From Verrucomicrobiaceae bacterium (GTDB lineage Bacteria; Verrucomicrobiota; Verrucomicrobiia; Verrucomicrobiales; Verrucomicrobiaceae): a stretch of 35,300 nucleotides of DNA. A program made the position numbers and the translations under genes. The notes beneath the pieces were generated by a model. The model did not search any database. It saw only the letters and a program-made list of their open reading frames with translations, and was not told the DNA's origin. Positions within the stretch are counted from its first letter, which is position 1. Every line of letters starts with the position of its first letter. Positions 1 through 11,490 of the stretch are shown here, piece after piece. Location: the NCBI GenBank assembly GCA_027486585.1, contig JAIXOU010000114.1, forward strand, positions 1 through 35,300. The letters run 5' to 3'.

Positions 1-2608
1 CACGATCAGGGAAGCCATCATCATCCCGGCCATCATCATCTTTTCCGTCGGAATCCAGAAAGCCTTTTTCCGCCGTTGTGACGAGAGCAGTATCATAACC
101 ATTATAGACTGATTGAGCGTAAACGATACAAGACACCTGCACCCCCATAATAGACACCGTTTTCAGGGTGATGTCTTTTTCTGTCTTGGGAAGAGTGCCA
201 CTTCTAAATTGGCGCTGCTCCACACGGCAATTGTTCAATGTGGCCGTGGCAGGCCCAGTGGCTGGTTGTAAATCAGAATAAACGACCATGCTCCGGGAGC
301 CGCCTAAAACAACGCCACGCACGCCGCCACTCAAGGGTTGACCATCCCAGGGTTCGTAAATAGTGCTGGGCAGATCTGATCCTGCTCGGCTCGGGTTGAA
401 GGTACTCACTCTGGGATAGTCATAGCGCTTCCAACTACCGTCATTGGAAACGACCGTAGCCAGCTGGCCATAGCCAGGTTGGTTCAACAGCTGATAATAG
501 GTGTAATCGGTGACTTTCTTGCCAGTGTCATTTTGGGCATTGGCAAAGGCCTCTCTCTTCGTGACCTCCCAGCCCCAGCCAAAATTCGTCTTGGTGGTCA
601 CCACCTTGGCTTCGATCAGGCCCGCAGGGCCTTCGGTGGTTTCAGTTAAAGTCTCAGTCATGGGGCCGGTCACGGTCACTTTCCGAATCAACTGAAAGGC
701 ATCTGCCCCACTCTTTTCCATGACCCATTCTGTGCGCTTAGCCGTTCCGTCGGTTTGTTCCGTGTATTCACGGTAAATCGTGACCCAGGAAGAACTGCCT
801 CGCGTCTCCGTTATTTTAGCCACCGTTTTAACACCCGCTGGCAGGGCCGCCTGCACATTCTCAAGCTTCCAGCTAACATAAGGCGCAGGTGCCCCTGAAA
901 CGAGTTCATAAAATTCGCCAGTCGTCACGGCAGCCGCCCCAGGATCTGTAGCTGGTACCGTGACCTTCGCACCCGAAGCTGGATCCACCCAAATCGGACG
1001 GTAAAAAGACAACGTGTAACCGCTCACGACTCCGCTGGCATCAACAGCCTCACGCATATCCACAAAACAATCAGGTGTCTTAATCTGGCGGCGATGGTGG
1101 GATGCCGTGGGAGCACCCGCAGGCAGTCCAGGCTGCGAACCCACACCCCAGCCCGTGGTTAACCCCCTCGTTTCAATCAACTTCGAGGTATTCCCATAAC
1201 TAAGAGTCGAAAGCAGGAAGGACTGCGGTGTCAGAACTTTTTCACTCAATGCCAAAGTGCCAGCTGAACGCCCATCGGCCATTTTAGTGCCTAGACTTAC
1301 CGTCCAATCCAAGCTTGCGATTGCAGTGTCACCTGATCCAGCCGGATCGGAGCTGGTTTTGATGATAGTAAAGCTCCCATTTCCTGTGACAGTATTCTCT
1401 GAACATTCATCAGGCGCCACATAGCAACAAGAGCATTTGCAGAGGTTAGGCTGATCCGATTTACAAAGACACTCTTCTGGATGATCATCGTCATCGTCAT
1501 CTTCATCATCTGGGACATAGCCCTGACCGCTGCAATTTTCGCAATCAACCTTACCATCATTGCCACATCTGATACAAGGTTGTGTGCTGTTAACGCTGCC
1601 ACTTCCACCGCAATTTTCGCACGCAGGTGTTTTCGTGATTTTGCCTGTAGAATTGCAAGGTTTGCAATCATTGGTTCCACCGCTGCATTCGGGGCAATCA
1701 ATCGTTGGTGAGCACTCAATTGGTGGCAACCAGTCGCGGCAACTTTCACAGCTTGGATTTCCTTTGTGGTTTTGGCATGTGTTGCAGGTCGTAGATTCAA
1801 TTATAGCATTTGGATCGTAATCTGGATTAGCTATCTGTCCTTTGTCACAGCTGCTTTTGCATCGAGTTTTGCCTTTGCCGCCACAGGTTGGACAATTCAT
1901 CTTGGTATCGCCATTACAAGAAGTGCATGGTGTGCTTTCTATCACGAAGCCATTTACGCAGCCATAACGTGGGCAGTCCACTTGGCCGCCATTACAACCA
2001 CTCGCAGTGCAAGGTTTTGTGCCAGGTGATGGTGGTGGTGTTGTTGTTGCACAAGGGCACTTGCAGCCGCTTTTTGTACAGCTAGTGGGACCACCATCAC
2101 CATCTCCTGGTCGATTATTTCCCCCAGTCATGCTCCCAGAAGCTCCGTCTGAGATTTCGTATGTTTTCCCACAGCTACCGCTTCCACTGACCGAAAAGGT
2201 AAAGGTCACGTCCTTACATTTCCCACTTGAAGTCCAAGCAATCGGCTCATTTAAATACTCTTCAGCCTTGAGTCCACTAATGGATTGTGTTTGCCCACCA
2301 AGTTCCGAGCACTGCTGACTGGTCTGGAACGTAAGGGTCTGTCCACGTATATTGACTGTGACAGGACCCGCTGCTTTCCCTGAGGCAGCGACGTCAATGG
2401 ATATTTCACCTTCAGAGTTACCGCTGCCAGATGAATCACCACCACAGCAGGCTTGTGCCCAAAGTTGAATGCCGATAGCTCCAAATAAGATCAAAGTGCA
2501 GGCCAAAGGGATAAATGAAGAGCGCTTGGACTTGGCTTTCTGCCTTGGCTTGGGTTCCTCATCCAGCCAGTTTAACGCTTTTGAATAAAGGGTTTTGATC
2601 TTCCTCAT
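1..2608 (-). CDS. Large exported cysteine-rich protein with RHS/YD-like region, 3' end outside window
   Basis: An uninterrupted frame of 869 codons runs from the ATG at 2608 off the left edge with no stop. After a basic 31-residue N-region there is a hydrophobic stretch (about residues 32-49) ending in WAQA, which suggests a long signal peptide or signal anchor and export. Residues 176-402 are extremely cysteine-rich, with many CxxC pairs. Several fit the DnaJ zinc-finger pattern CxxCxGxG exactly (CPTCGGKG, CENCGGSG, CENCSGQG) and others are degenerate. An acidic run of Asp residues follows. Residues from about 410 onward resemble the N-terminal part of RHS/YD-repeat proteins (Tyr-rich, short beta-like strands, e.g. 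YTYYQLLNQPGYGQL). The last visible residues are an Asp/Gly-rich stretch like a calcium loop. It lies 35 bp downstream of the repeat protein at 2644-6132 and is probably cotranscribed. The RHS assignment is inference; the frame and cysteine motifs are seen directly. No Shine-Dalgarno is visible. Confidence 0.8.
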   Translation of the reverse strand, partial: MRKIKTLYSKALNWLDEEPKPRQKAKSKRSSFIPLACTLILFGAIGIQLWAQACCGGDSSGSGNSEGEISIDVAASGKAAGPVTVNIRGQTLTFQTSQQCSELGGQTQSISGLKAEEYLNEPIAWTSSGKCKDVTFTFSVSGSGSCGKTYEISDGASGSMTGGNNRPGDGDGGPTSCTKSGCKCPCATTTPPPSPGTKPCTASGCNGGQVDCPRYGCVNGFVIESTPCTSCNGDTKMNCPTCGGKGKTRCKSSCDKGQIANPDYDPNAIIESTTCNTCQNHKGNPSCESCRDWLPPIECSPTIDCPECSGGTNDCKPCNSTGKITKTPACENCGGSGSVNSTQPCIRCGNDGKVDCENCSGQGYVPDDEDDDDDDHPEECLCKSDQPNLCKCSCCYVAPDECSENTVTGNGSFTIIKTSSDPAGSGDTAIASLDWTVSLGTKMADGRSAGTLALSEKVLTPQSFLLSTLSYGNTSKLIETRGLTTGWGVGSQPGLPAGAPTASHHRRQIKTPDCFVDMREAVDASGVVSGYTLSFYRPIWVDPASGAKVTVPATDPGAAAVTTGEFYELVSGAPAPYVSWKLENVQAALPAGVKTVAKITETRGSSSWVTIYREYTEQTDGTAKRTEWVMEKSGADAFQLIRKVTVTGPMTETLTETTEGPAGLIEAKVVTTKTNFGWGWEVTKREAFANAQNDTGKKVTDYTYYQLLNQPGYGQLATVVSNDGSWKRYDYPRVSTFNPSRAGSDLPSTIYEPWDGQPLSGGVRGVVLGGSRSMVVYSDLQPATGPATATLNNCRVEQRQFRSGTLPKTEKDITLKTVSIMGVQVSCIVYAQSVYNGYDTALVTTAEKGFLDSDGKDDDGRDDDGFPDR

Positions 2609-2643
2609 AAGTAGATTCTTGGTGTGGTTCAAAAGTCTGGAAA

Positions 2644-5600
2644 TTAAAGGTTATCAAGTGAGGTCAGCACCCTGAGCCCAATGAGACTTCTTAGATTGGA
2701 CTGGGCGTTTAGTGGGTCTGTGCCCGCTTCTCTTTCGGCACTATCAGAAAAACCGTCCCCATCTGTATCTGCTAGGCGCGGATCTATCCCCAGCGCAATC
2801 TCTTGGCTATTTGTAATACCGTCACCATCGTAGTCCTCATTACCATCTCCAAGGTTATTAAAGTCTGAATCTTCCGCCAAGGGATTGCTGTTCAAACGAA
2901 ATTCCCAGAGATTGGTTAGGTCATCAGAATCGCTATCCACGTTGCCATCTGCAACCCGAAGTTGCAGCCCATTCGTGGTGTACTTCCATCTGCCATACTC
3001 ATGTTCCCAAAGGTCGCTCATACCGTCCCCGTCTAAATCCCCAGGCAGCTGTCTCTGATAAAAATAATGATCGGGTGCTGATGGACCGGCTAAGATTAGG
3101 TCCGCCCAATCCGGGACATTATTTCCATCCGCGTCGTCTGCAGGCGGTGTTGATCCATCGGAATGTCTGACCGCTAACATGAGTTGAAAGAGATCGCCCA
3201 AGGCTGTACCGTTTCCCATGGTATCCACGGTGTCTGGACGCAGCGCTAAAAGTCGTTCTTCTATGTTTAATACGCCGTCTCCATCAGGGTCAGCTACCGC
3301 ATCTGTAGGATCATTGCGAGACAAGACTTGTCGGAAACAATCTTCAAAAACATCAGATAACCCATCTCCATCGGAATCATAGCGAGCTAGATCAATATCA
3401 AGTGAAATGCCCATGGCATACTGGACTTTATTGTTCATGCCGTTCTGATCCAAATCATTAAGACCGTCCGCTGAAGAGTTTGGGTTTAAGCCATAGAATA
3501 GTTCGACACGGTCTGGAATGGTGTCCGTATCCGTATCAGTTAGATCGACCAAATCATAATCTGTGTACTGCGTGTTCCAACCTTTGGCTTTGCTAATCGA
3601 ATGTTTATCAAGAGGATTTGAGTTATGAATTCGGAATTCCTCGCCGTCTGTAAGGCCATCGCTATCAGTGTCTTTCATTTGAGGGTCAGTCCCGAGAATG
3701 GTTTCACGACTATTCGAGAGTCCGTCTTGGTCGGGATCGGCGAGGGCATCAATGGTTTCGGGAGCTTGATCATAGAAATTTTGAATACCATCTTCGTCCT
3801 CATCTCCAAAAACGTTAGTCCACCAGGTGATGCCGTTATGTGGGCTTGTGTTATCCGCCTTGTTTGGCTCTGGGTCATTGAGATCCAAATATCCATCCAT
3901 ATCACTATCTATTCTGTCTGACTCATAGGGGCGCGGATCATAAAAATTGTACAGACCATCATTATCTTCATCTTCATAGGCACCTCCGTACCAATCCACT
4001 TGATTGATGAAACTATGGTTGGCTGAAGATTTCGGCATGGGATCATGCAGCCCTTGCGCATCAACGGTGTCGAACGCGTCTTGATCCTCGTTGTTATTGC
4101 CATTCAGGGGGTCTTCTGGAAGCTCATCAATAAAGTTATAGAGTCCGTCTCGATCTGTGTCGCCGTAATATTTGATTAACTGATCAGCCCTTGCACTACT
4201 ATCCATTGAAACGCTTTCTTGTAATGGATCATAGGCATCAGCAATACCGTCATGATCACTGTCAGGATTGGGCTGATAGTTAGGCGGAGGCTGGATTGGG
4301 TTTCCATCCGCATCTAGTGGATAGTCCCAGTATGGTTGAGGTTCTGGAAGAGGTGATGGATCTGTGGCGTTAGGAATGGTGTCGGCGTCTAGATCCCCAC
4401 TAGCTGACCAAGGAAGCGTATCCACTCCATTCACTGTCCAAAGCATGCCGTTTTGTGAACTAATCTCTAAGTGAGGCTCAGCTGGGCGATTTGACGTGTT
4501 TGGTTCACCATCCCAATAATTCAAAAGTCCATCTTGATCGGAGTCCCCCCAAACATCCTGACTCCATGCTATATCATTGATTGGGCTAAGGTTGGTGGCA
4601 CTTTTTGGGTCTGGATCATTATTATTGAGAATGCCATCACCGTCGAAATCGGCTAACCCATCGTATTTACTCCAAGGAAAGAGGTCGTGGAAATTGACAG
4701 TTCCATCGTTGTCGATGTCTTCAAGCGGACTTGTCGGCCAATCCAGCCCATTGGCTACACTATGATTTGATGTGTCGTTTGGCGCTGGATCTACTGAGTT
4801 TTCAATTCCGTCATCATCATTGTCAGTGTCCTCGTCTGGCGGGGCTCCATTCCGTGGATCATCAGGCCAAGCATCATTATAATTGAAAACTCCGTCTGAA
4901 TCATTATCTCCGAACACATTGCTGTACCAATAAATGAAATTGTTAGAAGAGTAGTTATTCCAATCGTAAGGATAAGGATCTATGTCATCAGTATAGGAAT
5001 CCCAATCCGAATCTTGCGGGTAAGTCCAAACACAATAAACATAACCATTGTTTGAGTCATAAGGCCAAGCATCAGAGTGATTTGGGTAGCCATCGGAATC
5101 TGAATCTCCCAAAACATTGCTATACCAATATTGACCATTTGTGGAAGAATAGTTTGAATAATCGCTTGGGTAAGGATCTTGATCATTTGTTAATCCATCG
5201 CTGTCTGAGTCATTGTTTCCCGAGGATGAGCCATTGTTTGAATCGTAGGGCCAAGGATCATTATAATTCACCCAGCCATCAGAATCCGAATCTCCCAAAA
5301 CACTGCTATACCAATATTGGCCGTTAGTAGATGAATAGTTTGAATGATCGCTTGGATATGGATCTGATTCATTGTTTAATCCATCACCATCGCCATCAGG
5401 ACTACCATTGTTCGCATCATAAGGATAACTATCCCAATAATTTGCAATCGAATCAGAATCCGCATCGCCTAGCGCGTCACCATGCCAATTCAAATAATTG
5501 TTAAAACTGTAGTTGGCGCTGCTAGCCGAATCGGGATCAATGGAGTCATTCAAACCGTCCTGATCATTATCGTTATTCAGTGGATCGAGTGGGTAGGAGT

Positions 5601-6132
5601 CAAAAGGGTTCTTTGTTCCATCTCCGTCGTAGTCTGAATAGCTGGCATTTGGAAACTGAGGGAGAATTCCACTCGTGTACGTTACATTGAAAGATCCGTA
5701 AAAATCATCAAAGTCACTGACTTGGTCGCCATTACTATCCCAGGTTGTTAAGGAAAATGGTTTCCCATAGCTTTGAATTGCCAAATGGATTTCATCGCCG
5801 TCACCAAGGCCGTCCCCGTCTGTATCAAAAATGAATGGGTTAGAATTATATTGTAATTCCTCGACATTAGTAGCGTTGTCTGAATCAATGTCTATGCCGA
5901 TGGTATCTAGTTGAAGCAATGTGAATGTTTGACTAGTTGAAGGATCAATCCACTGATCTGGAATGCTATCAAGATCTACATCTACCCATGATGATTCAGC
6001 TAATAATGGCTGAAGACTCAATAAAATTGAAGCCAACACTTGAATCGCTGCCGCCCAAGGACTACGAAAGCGAGGGAGAACCTGTACGTAAGGTTTCATG
6101 TGGGGATTCAGATGCAACGAGTTTTTGGACAT
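2644..6132 (-). CDS. Exported thrombospondin type 3-like repeat protein (calcium-binding, giant)
   Basis: A 1162-residue protein with an N-terminal signal peptide (basic N-region, hydrophobic segment at about residues 28-45, likely cleavage after LLA-ES). The mature part is built from Asp-rich DxDxDG loops typical of thrombospondin type 3 / EF-hand-like calcium-binding repeats. From about residue 190 to 800 they form roughly ten compound units of about 57-85 residues. Each unit has one loop of the form DxDxDGxxNxxDPxPxD, a middle segment with N-x-S and a Trp/Tyr core (NYSSTNGQYWYS in the best copies), and then a second loop GDxDxDGxxNxxD. The last 300 residues contain more canonical repeats such as DTDGDGFSD. 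The protein is probably a rigid, calcium-stabilised cell-surface or secreted stalk. ATG at 6132 is used; an in-frame Met12 is an alternative. Base composition is low in G+C (19 of 60 at 5101-5160) compared with ftsK next door (40 of 60 at 7441-7500). Confidence 0.88.
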   Translation of the reverse strand: MSKNSLHLNPHMKPYVQVLPRFRSPWAAAIQVLASILLSLQPLLAESSWVDVDLDSIPDQWIDPSTSQTFTLLQLDTIGIDIDSDNATNVEELQYNSNPFIFDTDGDGLGDGDEIHLAIQSYGKPFSLTTWDSNGDQVSDFDDFYGSFNVTYTSGILPQFPNASYSDYDGDGTKNPFDSYPLDPLNNDNDQDGLNDSIDPDSASSANYSFNNYLNWHGDALGDADSDSIANYWDSYPYDANNGSPDGDGDGLNNESDPYPSDHSNYSSTNGQYWYSSVLGDSDSDGWVNYNDPWPYDSNNGSSSGNNDSDSDGLTNDQDPYPSDYSNYSSTNGQYWYSNVLGDSDSDGYPNHSDAWPYDSNNGYVYCVWTYPQDSDWDSYTDDIDPYPYDWNNYSSNNFIYWYSNVFGDNDSDGVFNYNDAWPDDPRNGAPPDEDTDNDDDGIENSVDPAPNDTSNHSVANGLDWPTSPLEDIDNDGTVNFHDLFPWSKYDGLADFDGDGILNNNDPDPKSATNLSPINDIAWSQDVWGDSDQDGLLNYWDGEPNTSNRPAEPHLEISSQNGMLWTVNGVDTLPWSASGDLDADTIPNATDPSPLPEPQPYWDYPLDADGNPIQPPPNYQPNPDSDHDGIADAYDPLQESVSMDSSARADQLIKYYGDTDRDGLYNFIDELPEDPLNGNNNEDQDAFDTVDAQGLHDPMPKSSANHSFINQVDWYGGAYEDEDNDGLYNFYDPRPYESDRIDSDMDGYLDLNDPEPNKADNTSPHNGITWWTNVFGDEDEDGIQNFYDQAPETIDALADPDQDGLSNSRETILGTDPQMKDTDSDGLTDGEEFRIHNSNPLDKHSISKAKGWNTQYTDYDLVDLTDTDTDTIPDRVELFYGLNPNSSADGLNDLDQNGMNNKVQYAMGISLDIDLARYDSDGDGLSDVFEDCFRQVLSRNDPTDAVADPDGDGVLNIEERLLALRPDTVDTMGNGTALGDLFQLMLAVRHSDGSTPPADDADGNNVPDWADLILAGPSAPDHYFYQRQLPGDLDGDGMSDLWEHEYGRWKYTTNGLQLRVADGNVDSDSDDLTNLWEFRLNSNPLAEDSDFNNLGDGNEDYDGDGITNSQEIALGIDPRLADTDGDGFSDSAEREAGTDPLNAQSNLRSLIGLRVLTSLDNL

Positions 6133-6191
6133 ACTTTGTGTGAATCAATTAATTAACACCGTTAGTTGATCTCAAAAAAATCATTGAGAGG

Positions 6192-6225
6192 CAAGAATAT
6201 TGTTCACTGTTTTCAAGAATATTGT
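6192..6225. promoter_or_regulatory. Direct repeat CAAGAATATTGT x2 in divergent intergenic region
   Basis: The 12-mer CAAGAATATTGT occurs at 6192-6203 and again, identical, at 6214-6225. The start-to-start distance is 22 bp, about two helical turns. Both copies lie in the 213-bp AT-rich gap between the divergent repeat-protein gene (start 6132) and ftsK (start 6346). The arrangement fits a regulator binding on one face of the DNA. No regulator is identified, so this is a candidate only. Confidence 0.4.
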
Positions 6226-6345
6226 CCGATATCAGCTATTTCATCCCTATAGCCAGATTTTTCCTCCGTCGTGATTGAGTTTTGTTGATATTTTGGATAA
6301 GTTGAGTAATTGTGGGCGATTAATCCCGAATTCCTCTAAAAACGC

Positions 6346-9024
6346 ATGGCACAGGCAGCAACAGCAGCACGTCCGGCACGTTCGCGTGACCAGCAGAAAG
6401 ATAGTCCCTGGAACGATCCCATTGGCATTGGGATGCTGGTTCTGGCGGCGATGTATTTGTTGGCGCTGATTTCTTATGATCCTCGGGATCTGCCTGCGTG
6501 GTCGCATTTTAGCACGGCTCAGGAAAGCGCTGGTGTGCGGCATAATTTCATTGGCGTGCTGGGGGCTATCGGAGCGGGCTACACTCTGGCGTTGGCGGGC
6601 TGGGCTACTTATTTGCTGCCTTTTAGCCTGACTTGGTTCGGGGTGTGCAAGCTTTCTTCTAACATCAAGATCAGTGGTCGCTCTTGGCTGGGCGTGGTGC
6701 TCATGATCATCAGCGCGGCGGCTATTATCGAGGTGCAGGGCATTTTGAGTTCGAAGGATGACATCACGCCGCTGGGTGGTGGTGGGGGCTTGGGGTATTT
6801 GATTGGGGGCAGTCTTTTCTCCAATCTGCTCGGTGTGTTTGGTTCGACCGTGATTCTGGGTGGGATTTATGCGGTGGGCTTTTTCCTGACCAGCGGACTG
6901 CATCCAGTGCAGGTGATGGAGGAGATTCGCCATGAGATCTCGATGATGATCGAGCGTGCCCGTATCCGTCGGGAACTGGAGGATGAAATGGCCGAGGCTG
7001 AGGCCAATGGGATCAGCCCGGCAGCTCAGGTGGCGGTGAAGAAAAAGCGTCCGGCTAAAGATGAAGTTCGTGCGGATGGTAGGCCGGCTGGGCCTTTGGT
7101 TACGCCTGAATTGGGTCTGACCTTTGAGCCGCAGAAGCCGAAGATCATTGATTCCTCGGCACCGCGAGTGCATTCAGATGAGGATAAAGATAAGCCGAAG
7201 CTTTCAGATGTTTGGGAAAAGAAACGTGCTCAAAAGATAGAGCAGGCACCTCATGGTTCCCTCGGTGGACTGACGGTCCGCTTCAAAGATTACAAGTTGC
7301 CGGCGCTGGATCTGCTGCACTGGGCGGATGATACGGAACGGTTGCCGACGGATAAAGGCGAGCTGCTAGCGATTCAGGACACGATCATTAAATCACTGGC
7401 CAGTTTTGGCGTGAAGGTCGAGGCGGGTGACATCACGCGGGGGCCAGCCATCACGCGGTATGAAGTTCGCCCCGTGGACGGTCTGCGTGTGGCGCGAATC
7501 GCGGCTCTGGATGACGACATCGCCCGGGCGACTTGTGCGGAGCGCATCAATATTTTGGCTCCGATTCCTGGGAAAGACACGGTCGGTATTGAGCTGGCCA
7601 ATCGTGAGAAGACGGCGGTGCGTATTCGTGAACTGCTAGAAGACGACATCTTTGCGAATGGCAAGGCGAGGATTCCGATCGCGCTGGGTAAGGACGTTTA
7701 CGGCAAGACGATCATTGGCGATCTCGCTGGAATGCCGCATCTGCTGGTGGCCGGTGCGACGGGCTCGGGGAAATCGGTGTGTATCAATGGCATCATCACC
7801 AGCTTGTTGTGCCGGTTTGCACCGGATGAACTGCGGTTCATTATGATCGATCCAAAGGTGGTGGAAATGCAGGCCTACGCTGAGCTGCCGCATTTGGCCC
7901 TGCCTGTGGTGACTGATCCGAAGAAGGCGCTGATGGCGCTCCGCTGGGTGGTCAAGGAGATGGAAAATCGCTACCAAATGTTTGCTCATGAAGGCTGCCG
8001 CAATTTCGAGGTCTTCAATAATCGCAATCGCAAACGTGCTGCGGACAATGAGGCGCGCAGAGCGGCTGCTGCAGCAGCGATGCCTGTCACAGAGGAGCCG
8101 TCCATTGTACTGAGTTCTGGGGCTAAACCAGCGACCACCAGTGCCGGGACGGACGATGTGCGCGTCTCAGCGGCTTTTGCCAAAGCGGCAGCTGCTGCGG
8201 ATAATCTGGTGGACGGCACCTCGCCGCCTTGGGAAGAGTTGGCTCCAGACACTGAGGCTGAGGTGTTGCCGGTAGAAAACCTCGAAGACGATAGCGGTAT
8301 CTGGCATGGCGATTCCCAGCCGCCTCCGCGTCGCAGTCAGCAGTTGGAGATTCCAGACACGCTGCCGTACATTGTGGTCATCATTGATGAGTTGGCGGAC
8401 CTGATGCAGACGGCTCCGGCTGACATTGAGGGTTCCATCGCCCGAATCACCCAAATGGCGCGTGCGGCTGGCATTCATCTCATCGTAGCCACTCAGACAC
8501 CGCGTGCCGATGTCATCACGGGGGTCATTAAGGCGAATATTCCGACTCGCATCGCTTTCCAGGTATCGTCTGCGCTGGATAGCCGAGTGATTCTGGATAA
8601 AAAAGGTGCTGAGAATCTGGTTGGCAAAGGGGACATGCTCTATGTGCCGCCTGGAGGAGCTCAGCAGATCCGCAGTCAGGGTGCCCTCGTCACGGATGAG
8701 GAGCTGCACGATCTCGTGGCGCACTGTGTTTCCCAGGGTAAACCGGTCTTTGATGTCCGAGTCGATGACGAAGGAAACGACTTCATGGGCGATGGCGAAG
8801 AAGGTGGCGGTGGCGTCAACTCGGAGGAAGAGGAGACCTTAGAGAAATGCCTAGAAGTCATGCGCCAGGAAAAAAAGGCCTCGACCAGTCTCTTTCAGCG
8901 GCGGTTACGCCTGGGTTATGGTCGCGCAGCCCGCATGATGGATATCCTCGAGGATCGCGGGATCATTGGTCCTGGCGATGGCGCAAAGCCGCGTGAGATT
9001 CTGGTTTCGATGGACATGATTTGA
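6346..9024 (+). CDS. ftsK: DNA translocase FtsK/SpoIIIE
   Basis: An 892-residue ATP-driven DNA pump that coordinates chromosome segregation and dimer resolution at the division septum. Residues about 25-190 contain hydrophobic membrane segments. A charged linker follows to about residue 320, then the alpha domain (KLPALDLL...) and the RecA-like motor. Walker A is GATGSGKS at 470-477, and Walker B is IVVIIDELADL with the DE at 681-682. The C-terminal winged-helix gamma domain (about 820-892) contains SLFQRRLRLGYGRAARMMD, which in the family reads KOPS/SRS sites and contacts XerD. Oddity: between the conserved FEVFNNRN (554-561) and Walker B there is an Ala-, Pro- and acid-rich insertion of about 100 residues (565-665), longer than in well-known homologues. 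The ATG at 6346 lacks an SD. The downstream vapB gene starts 43 bp after the stop. Confidence 0.96.
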   Translation: MAQAATAARPARSRDQQKDSPWNDPIGIGMLVLAAMYLLALISYDPRDLPAWSHFSTAQESAGVRHNFIGVLGAIGAGYTLALAGWATYLLPFSLTWFGVCKLSSNIKISGRSWLGVVLMIISAAAIIEVQGILSSKDDITPLGGGGGLGYLIGGSLFSNLLGVFGSTVILGGIYAVGFFLTSGLHPVQVMEEIRHEISMMIERARIRRELEDEMAEAEANGISPAAQVAVKKKRPAKDEVRADGRPAGPLVTPELGLTFEPQKPKIIDSSAPRVHSDEDKDKPKLSDVWEKKRAQKIEQAPHGSLGGLTVRFKDYKLPALDLLHWADDTERLPTDKGELLAIQDTIIKSLASFGVKVEAGDITRGPAITRYEVRPVDGLRVARIAALDDDIARATCAERINILAPIPGKDTVGIELANREKTAVRIRELLEDDIFANGKARIPIALGKDVYGKTIIGDLAGMPHLLVAGATGSGKSVCINGIITSLLCRFAPDELRFIMIDPKVVEMQAYAELPHLALPVVTDPKKALMALRWVVKEMENRYQMFAHEGCRNFEVFNNRNRKRAADNEARRAAAAAAMPVTEEPSIVLSSGAKPATTSAGTDDVRVSAAFAKAAAAADNLVDGTSPPWEELAPDTEAEVLPVENLEDDSGIWHGDSQPPPRRSQQLEIPDTLPYIVVIIDELADLMQTAPADIEGSIARITQMARAAGIHLIVATQTPRADVITGVIKANIPTRIAFQVSSALDSRVILDKKGAENLVGKGDMLYVPPGGAQQIRSQGALVTDEELHDLVAHCVSQGKPVFDVRVDDEGNDFMGDGEEGGGGVNSEEEETLEKCLEVMRQEKKASTSLFQRRLRLGYGRAARMMDILEDRGIIGPGDGAKPREILVSMDMI

Positions 9025-9036
9025 AGAAATGCTTGA

Positions 9037-9060
9037 ATGATGCATATGCGTATGCATCAT
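9037..9060. promoter_or_regulatory. Palindromic operator upstream of vapBC
   Basis: A perfect 10-bp inverted repeat, ATGATGCATA / TATGCATCAT, with a 4-bp centre (TGCG), ends 7 bp before the vapB start codon. Type II antitoxins such as VapB bind palindromes over their own promoter, alone and in complex with the toxin. Position and symmetry fit that role. Direct sight of the palindrome; function inferred. Confidence 0.7.
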
Positions 9061-9067
9061 TTGGCGC

Positions 9068-9322
9068 ATGAGAACGACATTGATTATCGAAGACAGTCTT
9101 TTGGCCAAGGCGGCCAGTTTGACCGGTATTGCTGAAAAAACGAAATTGATCCACATGGGGCTTGAGGCGCTCATTCACAGAGAGTCCGCTAGGAGGTTGT
9201 CTGCGTTGGGCGGTTCTATGCCTGATTTGGACGTGCCTGTGAGAAGACGCGCCTCAGAGGACATTCTCATGACGCCCTCGCTAAAGGTTGCTGAAAAAAC
9301 AATTCCTTATGGTGCTAGCTGA
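9068..9322 (+). CDS. vapB: VapB-type antitoxin
   Basis: An 84-residue protein beginning MRTTLIIEDSLLAKAASLTGI, followed by EKTKLIHMGLEALIHRESA. This is the usual ribbon-helix-helix-like N-terminus of the VapB family (DUF2191 type), in which the N-terminal half binds DNA and the C-terminal tail wraps the toxin. The C-terminal half contains DLDVPVRRR, a plausible toxin-binding segment. It overlaps the toxin gene by 14 nt, so the two are translationally coupled, as is typical for antitoxin-first pairs. The operator palindrome at 9037-9060 lies directly upstream. Expected to neutralise VapC and repress the operon. Confidence 0.9.
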   Translation: MRTTLIIEDSLLAKAASLTGIAEKTKLIHMGLEALIHRESARRLSALGGSMPDLDVPVRRRASEDILMTPSLKVAEKTIPYGAS

Positions 9323-9683
9323 TACTAATGTCTGGATCAATTTTCTGCATGGCAAAGACCAATTGCTAGGCCACATGCTCTGGCGGGGAGAAGTGGTCAT
9401 GCACTGGATCGTCATTGGCGAGTTAGCGACGGGGAATCTAGCGAACCGTGCCCATTTTCTGCATGATCTGCGGGAGATGGAAATGGTGCAGCCTGCGACT
9501 GAACGCGAGTCTTTGGCATTGATCGAAAATCGCCGATTGTTTGCGCGCGGAATCGGCTGGAACGATATTCAGATTCTGGCCAGTTGCCAGATTCATCATG
9601 TGCCACTTTGGACCAGTGACCGAAGATTGCGCGAGGCCGCTGTAGAGCTTGGATGTTCTTGGGTCAACAGTTCAGAAGACTAG
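9309..9683 (+). CDS. vapC: VapC toxin, PIN-domain ribonuclease
   Basis: 124 residues from the ATG at 9309; an in-frame TTG at 9288 would add seven residues but does not fit the family start (MxLxDTxVWI). The PIN-domain acidic residues are all present: D5 (LADTNVWINFL), E38 (VIGELA), D86 (GWNDIQILAS) and D104 (WTSDRRL). The protein should be an active Mg-dependent endoribonuclease; VapC toxins cut tRNA or rRNA loops. The gene overlaps vapB by 14 nt, and an AAAGG run about 21 nt upstream is inside vapB. The pair is small and self-contained, between housekeeping ftsK and an efflux operon. Confidence 0.92.
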   Translation: MVLADTNVWINFLHGKDQLLGHMLWRGEVVMHWIVIGELATGNLANRAHFLHDLREMEMVQPATERESLALIENRRLFARGIGWNDIQILASCQIHHVPLWTSDRRLREAAVELGCSWVNSSED

Positions 9684-9798
9684 AGTTCCATTGATAGATC
9701 TGTGCTCCTGACCGCGTTTAAGTGTACCCCCCAACAACCTGAGACCATCTGAATCCTTTTTCGGATTTTCTTGTCCCACTTTACCCCAGCGTTTCTTC

Positions 9799-11490
9799 AT
9801 GCCTTTTTATCGTCACATCTGCTCTGCCTTGGCTTTGGCCACGCTGAGTTCGGTGCTGATGACAGGCTGTACTCAGAAGTTTTACAAAGGATGGGCTGAT
9901 AAACAGGTCTTTGGCATCATTGGCAGTAAGAAGCAGATCGTGAAAGACGCCGACGATGAGACTTTGCTCAGCATCATGCCACCACCGCCAGTGCAGTTGG
10001 ACAAACTCATGGTGAAGACAGAAGGTTCAGAGTTTTTGGGCAAGCGAGCCTTCATCGAAAAAGGCGCACGTGTGTTGACTCTGGCTAATGCCCTGGATTT
10101 TGCGGTTCATCGGAACCGGGTTTATCTAACCCGAAAGGAAGTCGTCTATCTCCAGGCTTTGGCTCTTACTCGGACTCGACAGCAGTATGGCCCGATTGCT
10201 GATGGTGGAGGTAGTTCGACATTCACGGAGTCTCAGACCAAGGCTGGGGTGAATAATTTTGTCAGGAAATCTACCTTGCTTAGCAAAGGGGATGTTGGAC
10301 TGAGATACCTCATGAAAACGGGCGCCGTATTAGCCCTTGATCTCACGTCAGATTTCACTCGCACCTTTACTGGCAATGTCAAAGGCCTCAGTGATTCCAA
10401 GGCCGCTGTGACATTGGCACAGCCGCTGTTGCGAGGCGTCGGTGTCTTGGCCGCTGTTGAGCCTTTGCGTCAGGATGAAAGGAATGTGCTTTATGCCATT
10501 CGTGATTTCACCCAATACAGGAAGAACTTCGCGGTGGATGTGACCCGGCAATACATGCGGACTTTGCAGGCACGTGAGCAGGCTAGAAATCGGTACACGG
10601 CTTACTTGGCAGGTCAGCGTAACATTTTACGTGATCGCGCTCTGGCGGAGGCCAATATGAGGTCTCAATCTCAGCTCATGCAGCTAGAGCAGGGAACCTT
10701 GAGTTATGAACGCACATGGATGACGGCGATTCGGACTTATGAAGACGCACTTGATGACCTTAAGGTGGTGCTAGGTCTGCCGGTGACCGAGCGGCTTATC
10801 TTGGATTCAAGGGAACTGACAAAACTAGATGTCTCTGATCCCCGAGGCACCATGGATGAGATGGTCGATACGGCCTTAATTACCAGGCTTGATATCTACA
10901 ATGTCCGTGATCGTCTCGCTGACTCTGGCCGTAGAGTGAAGATCGCGCATCAAAACACACTGCCTACTGTGAATGCGCTCATGAATTATCAAATCAGCAC
11001 GCCTGGTGAGAATGAGGGGTTGGAGCTCAATCCACGTCAGCGAAGGGTTCAGGGAGGATTGGATGTGGATCTGAATTTGAATACCTTGCCGGAACGCAAT
11101 GATCTCAGAGCTGCACAGATCAATGAGCAGGCGACACGCCGTGGACTCGATTTGGCCGAAGAAGAATTACGCAAGACCATTCGCAGTGATTGGCGCGGGC
11201 TTCAATTGGCCCAGAGTCAGTATGCCCTTGCGGTGCAAGGCCTGACGCTTGCTCAAAAACGATTGGAAATTGAAGAGGCACTGATGTCGGAAGGACAGGG
11301 AACAGCGCGTGATTTTGTGGAATCTTCTGACCGTCTGATTACGGCGAGCGATCAGGCCATCTCGACATTGATCGACCTCAATCTGGCCCGACTTCAGCTT
11401 TGGTCGGACATGGGAGTCTTATTCATTCAGAAAGATGGGGCTTGGGCAGACGTATTAAAACGCGAAAAGGTACAGGGAGACGCACCATGA
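9799..11490 (+). CDS. TolC-like outer membrane efflux protein (probable lipoprotein)
   Basis: A 563-residue protein with a signal peptide ending VLMTGC, so Cys24 is the probable lipid-modified residue, as in NodT-type outer membrane factors. The body has long amphipathic helices, with LRAAQINEQATRRGLDLAEEELRKTI-type segments around residues 435-460, as in the repeated outer membrane efflux protein domain. It would form the trimeric outer-membrane channel of a tripartite exporter. It is the first gene of an operon: its stop TGA overlaps the ATG of the adaptor gene (ATGA at 11487-11490). The ATG at 9799 has a pyrimidine-rich, SD-less leader. The substrate cannot be told. Confidence 0.88.
   Translation: MPFYRHICSALALATLSSVLMTGCTQKFYKGWADKQVFGIIGSKKQIVKDADDETLLSIMPPPPVQLDKLMVKTEGSEFLGKRAFIEKGARVLTLANALDFAVHRNRVYLTRKEVVYLQALALTRTRQQYGPIADGGGSSTFTESQTKAGVNNFVRKSTLLSKGDVGLRYLMKTGAVLALDLTSDFTRTFTGNVKGLSDSKAAVTLAQPLLRGVGVLAAVEPLRQDERNVLYAIRDFTQYRKNFAVDVTRQYMRTLQAREQARNRYTAYLAGQRNILRDRALAEANMRSQSQLMQLEQGTLSYERTWMTAIRTYEDALDDLKVVLGLPVTERLILDSRELTKLDVSDPRGTMDEMVDTALITRLDIYNVRDRLADSGRRVKIAHQNTLPTVNALMNYQISTPGENEGLELNPRQRRVQGGLDVDLNLNTLPERNDLRAAQINEQATRRGLDLAEEELRKTIRSDWRGLQLAQSQYALAVQGLTLAQKRLEIEEALMSEGQGTARDFVESSDRLITASDQAISTLIDLNLARLQLWSDMGVLFIQKDGAWADVLKREKVQGDAP

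What the first reader, a model, noticed from the sequence alone, without database searches (positions are those of the whole stretch)
1..2608. Exported protein carrying many DnaJ-type CxxCxGxG motifs, joined to RHS/YD-like sequence
Residues 176-402 hold dozens of cysteines in CxxC pairs, at least three of which fit CxxCxGxG exactly. That zinc-binding pattern is normal in cytosolic DnaJ, but this frame begins with a signal sequence or anchor. A zinc- or disulfide-knotted module on an RHS-like surface protein is unusual and may be a new architecture. The full gene lies beyond the window.
Basis: partly seen in the sequence, partly recalled or inferred. Interest (0 to 1): 0.6.

Follow-up and report, generated by a model that had tools for sequence, protein, structure and literature searches.

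The report
Exported RHS protein with cysteine array
A bacterium, probably of the order Verrucomicrobiales, has a gene for a very large exported RHS protein, probably a toxin used against other cells, whose front part holds an unusual string of paired cysteines that may bind zinc.

Summary
The gene at 2-2632 (-) has an export segment and, at residues 185-410, 36 cysteines with three exact CxxCxGxG motifs. It runs off the contig; the contig's first 119 bases recur exactly at the end of contig C48, where the same frame continues as RHS repeats and an RHS core. A relative, G005, has export segment, cysteine block and RHS in one 1823-aa frame.

The DnaJ link is weaker. The window block scores 15 bits (cut-off 32.7). 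The matching block of G022, cut out alone, scores 25.4 bits. A three-block profile lists BSD2 and anti-TRAP first in the PDB; two control profiles find nothing, but without G022 nothing significant remains. Structure prediction of the array failed.

The context is the larger result. The neighbouring gene encodes a TSP3-repeat protein. Its relatives stand beside RHS genes (5 of 20 fetched loci) or are fused to RHS (4 of 20); in G022 TSP3, cysteine array and RHS form one frame in that order. Best reading: an exported RHS polymorphic-toxin system with a modular stalk, in which a rare zinc-knuckle-like array fills the linker position. Zinc binding, toxicity and stalk role are inferred.

The parts
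2..2632 (-). Exported RHS-type protein, N-terminal 877 aa (open at contig end; TTG start, or ATG at 2608)
   Evidence: continues in frame in contig C48
2450..2524 (-). Hydrophobic signal or anchor segment, residues 37-61, directly before two cysteines; possibly a lipoprotein site
   Evidence: by eye on the translation; the fit of W-A-Q-A-C to the PROSITE lipobox pattern is recalled and comes from no call
2123..2449 (-). Beta-rich N-terminal domain and linker, residues 62-170
   Evidence: AlphaFold model with strands between residues about 76 and 161, mean pLDDT 52-73 in ten-residue blocks over residues 72-151; homologous in G005
1403..2080 (-). Cysteine array, residues 185-410, 36 Cys, 10 CxxC units, 3 exact CxxCxGxG
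   Evidence: DnaJ profile 15.0 bits at 1508-1666
2..1402 (-). Region after the cysteine array leading towards the RHS part, matched in G005
1..119 (.). 119 bases identical to the ends of contigs C48 and C71: assembly junction
2644..6132 (-). TSP3-repeat protein, 1162 aa, with a signal-like start by eye; 11 bases before the RHS ORF (35 before its ATG)
   Evidence: PF18884 50 bits, cut-off 25; homologous to the front part of the G022 protein, in which a cysteine array and RHS follow

Best explanation
The gene encodes the front part of an exported RHS polymorphic-toxin protein. Shown by sequence: a TSP3-repeat gene and the RHS gene are neighbours; in relatives they are neighbours or one protein; the cysteine array lies between the TSP3 part and the RHS part. 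Inferred: TSP3 repeats bind calcium and make an extended rod; the CxxC knuckles, often 10-12 residues apart, pair up around zinc ions and form a short rigid beaded stalk; the stalk holds the RHS cocoon away from the cell surface; the cocoon encloses a variable C-terminal toxin that is released on contact; the 274-aa ORF after the RHS gene is the candidate immunity protein. The array is not a chaperone domain.
For: RHS continuation: RHS_repeat 120.5 bits, Rhs_assc_core 90.8 bits, cut-off 32.5. Same order of parts in one frame in G005 (RHS_repeat 167.1 bits) and, with TSP3 in front, in G022 (TSP3_bac 38.9 and RHS_repeat 61.8 bits). Window TSP3 protein 43% identical to the TSP3 part of G022 over 920 columns. 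TSP3 with RHS: 5 of 20 fetched loci as two genes, 4 of 20 fused. Toxin character in relatives: LHH nuclease at the C-terminus in L098, 70.4 bits, cut-off 23.3; JAB/DUF4329-like C-terminus in L094, under the cut-off. Zinc type: the three-block profile lists two BSD2 chains first in the PDB (E 0.001, 0.0011), then anti-TRAP (0.065), AIR2 (0.19) and a chain labelled DnaJ (0.27); the reversed and the Cys-fixed shuffled profiles find 0 at E<=10; G022 block alone 25.4 bits DnaJ, 20.1 bits Anti-TRAP. CxxC spacings of 10-12 residues: 4 of 9, 4 of 8 and 4 of 9 in window, G005 and G022, p 0.011, 0.012, 0.020 against random placement. 29 of the 36 array cysteines stand in identical columns of the alignment with G005.
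Against: Without the G022 row the profile finds only BSD2 at E 6.9; the longer two-row profile finds nothing, and neither does the window block alone. The G022 block alone has BSD2 (E 0.096) and DnaJ (0.17) on top in the PDB, neither significant, among 23 mixed weak hits. Of the 8 hits of the three-row profile 2 are cyanovirin, a disulfide protein. No zinc family passes its cut-off, and DnaJ is not listed at E<=10 when the whole G022 protein is scanned. AlphaFold gives block pLDDT 23-38 over the array and a mean of 35 for residues 304-380 alone. An exported protein is also where disulfides are expected. No convincing fold was found in the C-terminal tip, and the 274-aa ORF matches no family.
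Confidence: 0.5

Rival explanations
1. The cysteine array is a disulfide-bonded rod, as the EGF and cysteine-rich regions are in animal teneurins, and binds no metal.
For: The protein looks exported (by eye); animal teneurins have eight EGF repeats and a cysteine-rich region before the superfold that contains the YD shell (passage); G023 has a cysteine-rich linker of another pattern in the same place; 2 of 8 hits of the three-row profile are cyanovirin.
Against: No EGF or similar family in Pfam for the window protein or the blocks; the best PDB matches of the profile are CxxC zinc-type proteins, AIR2 as such from recall; Gly follows as CxxCxG in 5 of 10, 5 of 9 and 8 of 10 units.
Confidence: 0.3
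2. The array is a metal-scavenging, metallothionein-like patch, or a redox sensor that changes the RHS stalk on oxidation.
For: Very high cysteine content, 36 of 226 residues; the G023 linker also has HxH stretches near cysteines.
Against: Units keep the CxxCxG form and partly regular spacing, more than a metal sponge needs. No metal-handling genes were looked for.
Confidence: 0.12
3. The block is a drifting low-complexity linker with no function of its own.
For: Other TSP3-RHS systems have Gly-rich or Ig-like linkers here (Ig-like named by Pfam only in L101); the array is rare, 3 of 386 genomes of the order; the window block is only weakly DnaJ-like.
Against: 29 of 36 array cysteines stand in identical columns with G005 although the two proteins are only about 35% identical; motif counts exceed shuffles.
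Confidence: 0.08

Closest known systems
RHS polymorphic toxins (Rhs_assc_core type)
   Same: RHS repeats and RHS core followed by a short tip; a relative of the same TSP3-RHS kind ends in a known toxin fold
   Different: Export segment, TSP3 partner gene and cysteine array in front; no toxin fold recognised in this tip
Bacterial teneurin-like proteins (PMC13018210: abstract, passages and section 6 read)
   Same: YD shell with variable N-terminal surface modules and polymorphic C-termini; animal teneurins have a cysteine-rich part before the shell
   Different: TEN_YD-shell is not among the matches at E<=1 for the C48 frame or G005; the six phyla listed in that paper do not include Verrucomicrobiota
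DnaJ central domain, BSD2 and anti-TRAP zinc modules
   Same: CxxCxGxG-like knuckles; BSD2 and anti-TRAP are the best PDB matches of the three-block profile
   Different: 10 CxxC units; 4 of 9 spacings are 10-12 residues, against 17, 22 and 14 in the DnaJ of this genome; no J domain found; protein looks exported
Bacterial TSP3-repeat proteins (PF18884)
   Same: The neighbour protein passes the cut-off
   Different: Here next to an RHS gene; in relatives often next to or fused to RHS

Membership tests
RHS polymorphic toxin | RHS/YD repeats | tested here: met
   PF05593 120.5 bits in the C48 continuation; none in the window part
RHS polymorphic toxin | RHS-associated core | tested here: met
   TIGR03696 90.8 bits, cut-off 32.5, in the C48 continuation
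RHS polymorphic toxin | C-terminal toxin domain | tested here: inconclusive
   Only weak matches under cut-off in the own tip, best E 0.041; LHH nuclease in relative L098
RHS polymorphic toxin | Adjacent immunity gene that protects | not testable with these tools
   A 274-aa ORF follows, no family match
DnaJ central zinc domain (PF00684) | Profile score over the curated cut-off | tested here: not met
   15.0 bits in the window, cut-off 32.7; G022 block alone 25.4 bits
DnaJ chaperone | J domain in the same protein | tested here: not met
   No Pfam family at E<=1 in the 877 aa; no J domain among the matches of the C48 frame
DnaJ central zinc domain (PF00684) | Binds zinc | not testable with these tools
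   Models of the array are of too low confidence to judge geometry
Bacterial teneurin-like protein | Teneurin YD-shell profile | tested here: not met
   Not among Pfam matches at E<=1 for the C48 frame; folds not compared
TSP3 repeat protein | PF18884 over cut-off | tested here: met
   50 bits, cut-off 25, neighbour gene

The most novel reading that the evidence does not exclude
An exported RHS toxin system of Verrucomicrobiales is built on a two-metal stalk: a calcium-binding TSP3 rod, as a partner protein or as the front of the same protein, followed by an extracellular zinc-knuckle array of the BSD2/DnaJ type that carries the toxin cocoon and may gate its release when metal or redox state changes at the surface of the target.
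Probability: 0.25. Interest if true: 0.65.

Novelty: new variant of a known kind. Interest (0 to 1): 0.45.

Why it matters
How exported RHS proteins of this bacterial group are displayed and released is, as far as my few literature searches show, not described. A recurrent TSP3 partner, sometimes fused, points to a defined display module, and a DnaJ-type zinc array outside the cell would be an unusual use of that module. Both ideas can be tested with small pieces of protein.

Tried and rejected
Chance cysteine richness: rejected by shuffles. DnaJ membership: rejected, no J domain and under the cut-off. Structure of the array: two AlphaFold jobs gave no usable model, so no fold search was run and zinc geometry could not be checked. 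PHROGs gave nothing for the two window genes and one family of unknown function for the C48 frame. The other DnaJ-profile hits of the own genome (5 besides this gene) are DnaJ itself, two UvrA-like proteins and an RNase E/G-like protein, named by eye, and one in a broken frame that was not opened. Five further leads in relatives (L057-L061) look by eye like a DnaJ, a small membrane protein, a metal ATPase and two cytochrome-like proteins. The two weak phylum hits were not opened. Literature: I saw listings only, capped at 25 of 60,288, 22 of 22, 15 of 96, 12 of 12 and 12 of 155 papers; none of the titles and abstract beginnings shown describes this arrangement. The polymorphic-toxin survey PMC3482391 (passages only; first 300,000 characters held) has no occurrence of thrombospondin, TSP3, DnaJ, cysteine-rich or zinc ribbon. 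The TSP3 neighbour also matches the gliding protein model CglD at 44.1 bits, far under its cut-off of 400, which I take as shared TSP3 repeats.

Full report
What is there. The window is contig C73 of a 6.5 Mb genome in 147 contigs. The gene at 2-2632 (-) codes for 877 aa and runs off the contig. In order it has a basic start, a hydrophobic segment, a beta-rich domain, a cysteine array at residues 185-410 and a further region up to the contig end. The array has 36 cysteines. The protein has 10 CxxC units and three exact CxxCxGxG motifs; 0 and 1 of 10,000 shuffles reach the counts of CxxCxG and CxxCxGxG.

The rest of the gene. Bases 1-119 of the window are identical to the last 119 bases of contig C48 and the first 119 of contig C71. 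A search of the own genome with the 877 aa finds this end piece in these contigs only. The position at three contig ends suggests a k-mer overlap of the assembler (inference). C48 continues the same frame for 1585 aa, with RHS_repeat 120.5 bits and Rhs_assc_core 90.8 bits, ends in a 171-aa tip, and a 274-aa ORF follows. C71 carries an IS66-type element, named by eye from its ORFs, with 24-base inverted ends, 88% complementary, at 119-142 and 2762-2785; it begins where the shared sequence stops. So C48 has a second possible neighbour: a second copy, or a part of the population with the element in this gene.

Independent support for the architecture. Of 68 genomes of the bacterial family, 2 match the first 413 residues at 1e-5, the own one and G005. 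With a two-row profile it is 2 of 386 genomes of the order, at most 4 candidates scored per genome in the rows shown. G005 has one frame of 1823 aa, open at its contig end, with hydrophobic start, cysteine block and RHS repeats; its first 710 residues align with the window protein at 35% identity. A named record with a contig of the same length, probably the same contig, is a Verrucomicrobiales MAG; that the window comes from this order is inferred from this.

A third and a fourth case. The DnaJ profile in 37 genomes, own included, listed a weak hit, 16.6 bits, in a long frame of G022, same genus. This stop-to-stop frame of 2342 aa, which meets an unread base near its end, holds TSP3 repeats, then a cysteine array with 10 CxxC units, then RHS repeats. 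Reading TSP3 loci by eye gave G023, with a linker rich in cysteine and histidine between TSP3 and RHS. A profile of the three arrays finds 3 of 386 genomes of the order, which are its own members (at most 8 candidates scored per genome in the rows shown; it misses G023). In 387 genomes of the phylum it finds the own genome and two weak hits, 22-24 bits, in frames of 392 and 397 aa, of the length of DnaJ, not opened.

The TSP3 connection. The gene upstream, 2644-6132, encodes a TSP3-repeat protein (PF18884, 50 bits), 43% identical over 920 columns to the front part of the G022 protein. Its last 350 residues have matches at 1e-20 in 30 of 68 family genomes. Of 20 loci that I fetched from these matches, 5 have a separate YD-rich frame next to the TSP3 frame (L094, L095, L098, L099, L109), 4 have both in one frame (L097, L100, L101, L108), and 11 show no frame with three or more YD..G[RN] motifs, some of them cut by contig ends. 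Pfam confirms RHS_repeat over its cut-off in 7 of these 9: L094, L095, L098, L100, L101, L109 and L097. L099 gives only a TEN_YD-shell match under the cut-off, and L108 was not scanned. In the 9 loci read by eye the stretch before the RHS part varies: cysteine-rich, Gly-rich, Ig-like and others. The own genome has 4 RHS cores; the RHS frames of the three other loci hold no CxxC.

Toxin character. Among the relatives, L098 ends in an LHH nuclease, 70.4 bits, cut-off 23.3, and L094 in a JAB/DUF4329-like domain under the cut-off. The last 450 residues of L097 match no family at E<=5, nor does the 274-aa ORF, and the own tip has only weak matches. So the toxin reading rests on the RHS core and on one clear relative.

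Zinc or disulfide. For the window block alone the evidence is weak. The DnaJ profile gives 15.0 bits. With a profile from 27 DnaJ proteins the scores, and the Cys-fixed shuffles of 1000 that reach them, are: window 4.1 bits, 20; G005 1.4 bits, 87; G023 2.9 bits, 21; G022 15.8 bits, 0; a UvrA fragment as yardstick 15.4 bits, 2. In Pfam the G022 block alone gives DnaJ_CXXCXGXG 25.4 bits and Anti-TRAP 20.1 bits, both under cut-off; scanned as a whole protein, G022 shows no DnaJ match at E<=10 and Anti-TRAP only at E 0.57. The three-row profile puts two BSD2 chains and then anti-TRAP first among 177,635 PDB sequences; 8 sequences match at E<=10, of which 2 are cyanovirin. The reversed and the Cys-fixed shuffled profiles find none. 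Without G022 only BSD2 at E 6.9 remains. The window and G022 blocks match each other at E 2e-6 in a single comparison, in several registers, as expected for repeats. In the algal protein ZnJ2, with four CXXCXGXG motifs, one zinc per molecule was measured (passages of PMC5818400). I lean to zinc knuckles, not strongly.

Verdict. A real and rare architecture: a new variant of RHS polymorphic-toxin proteins. Its general part, TSP3 coupled to RHS, may be the more useful finding.

Noticed in passing
L005 (contig C71) 119-2785: IS66-type element with 24-base inverted ends whose left end abuts the same 119 bases as the window gene; its right flank is a different gene, so it marks an alternative branch at this gene.
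   Followed up: partly
L004 (contig C48) 1-400; L065, L066, L067: C48 begins with 105 bases shared exactly with the end of contig C103 and with sequence 74-80% alike in C17 and C89; the fetched stretches of C103, C17 and C89 hold proteins that look by eye like REP-associated transposases.
   Followed up: partly
L097 (G023), frame 662-10810 (-), residues 1044-1268: Linker rich in cysteine and histidine, with HxH stretches before CY pairs, between TSP3 and RHS parts.
   Followed up: partly
L098 1015-8313 and L094 1378-8640: RHS partners of TSP3 genes ending in an LHH nuclease and in a JAB/DUF4329-like domain.
   Followed up: partly
L062 6821-7607 and L005 3022-3834: Two proteins that share a stretch like REVxxFVGxEPDPPY, one next to an RHS gene, the other next to the IS66 element.
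   Followed up: no
window 6247-35300: The remainder of the window was listed for ORFs only and not studied.
   Followed up: no
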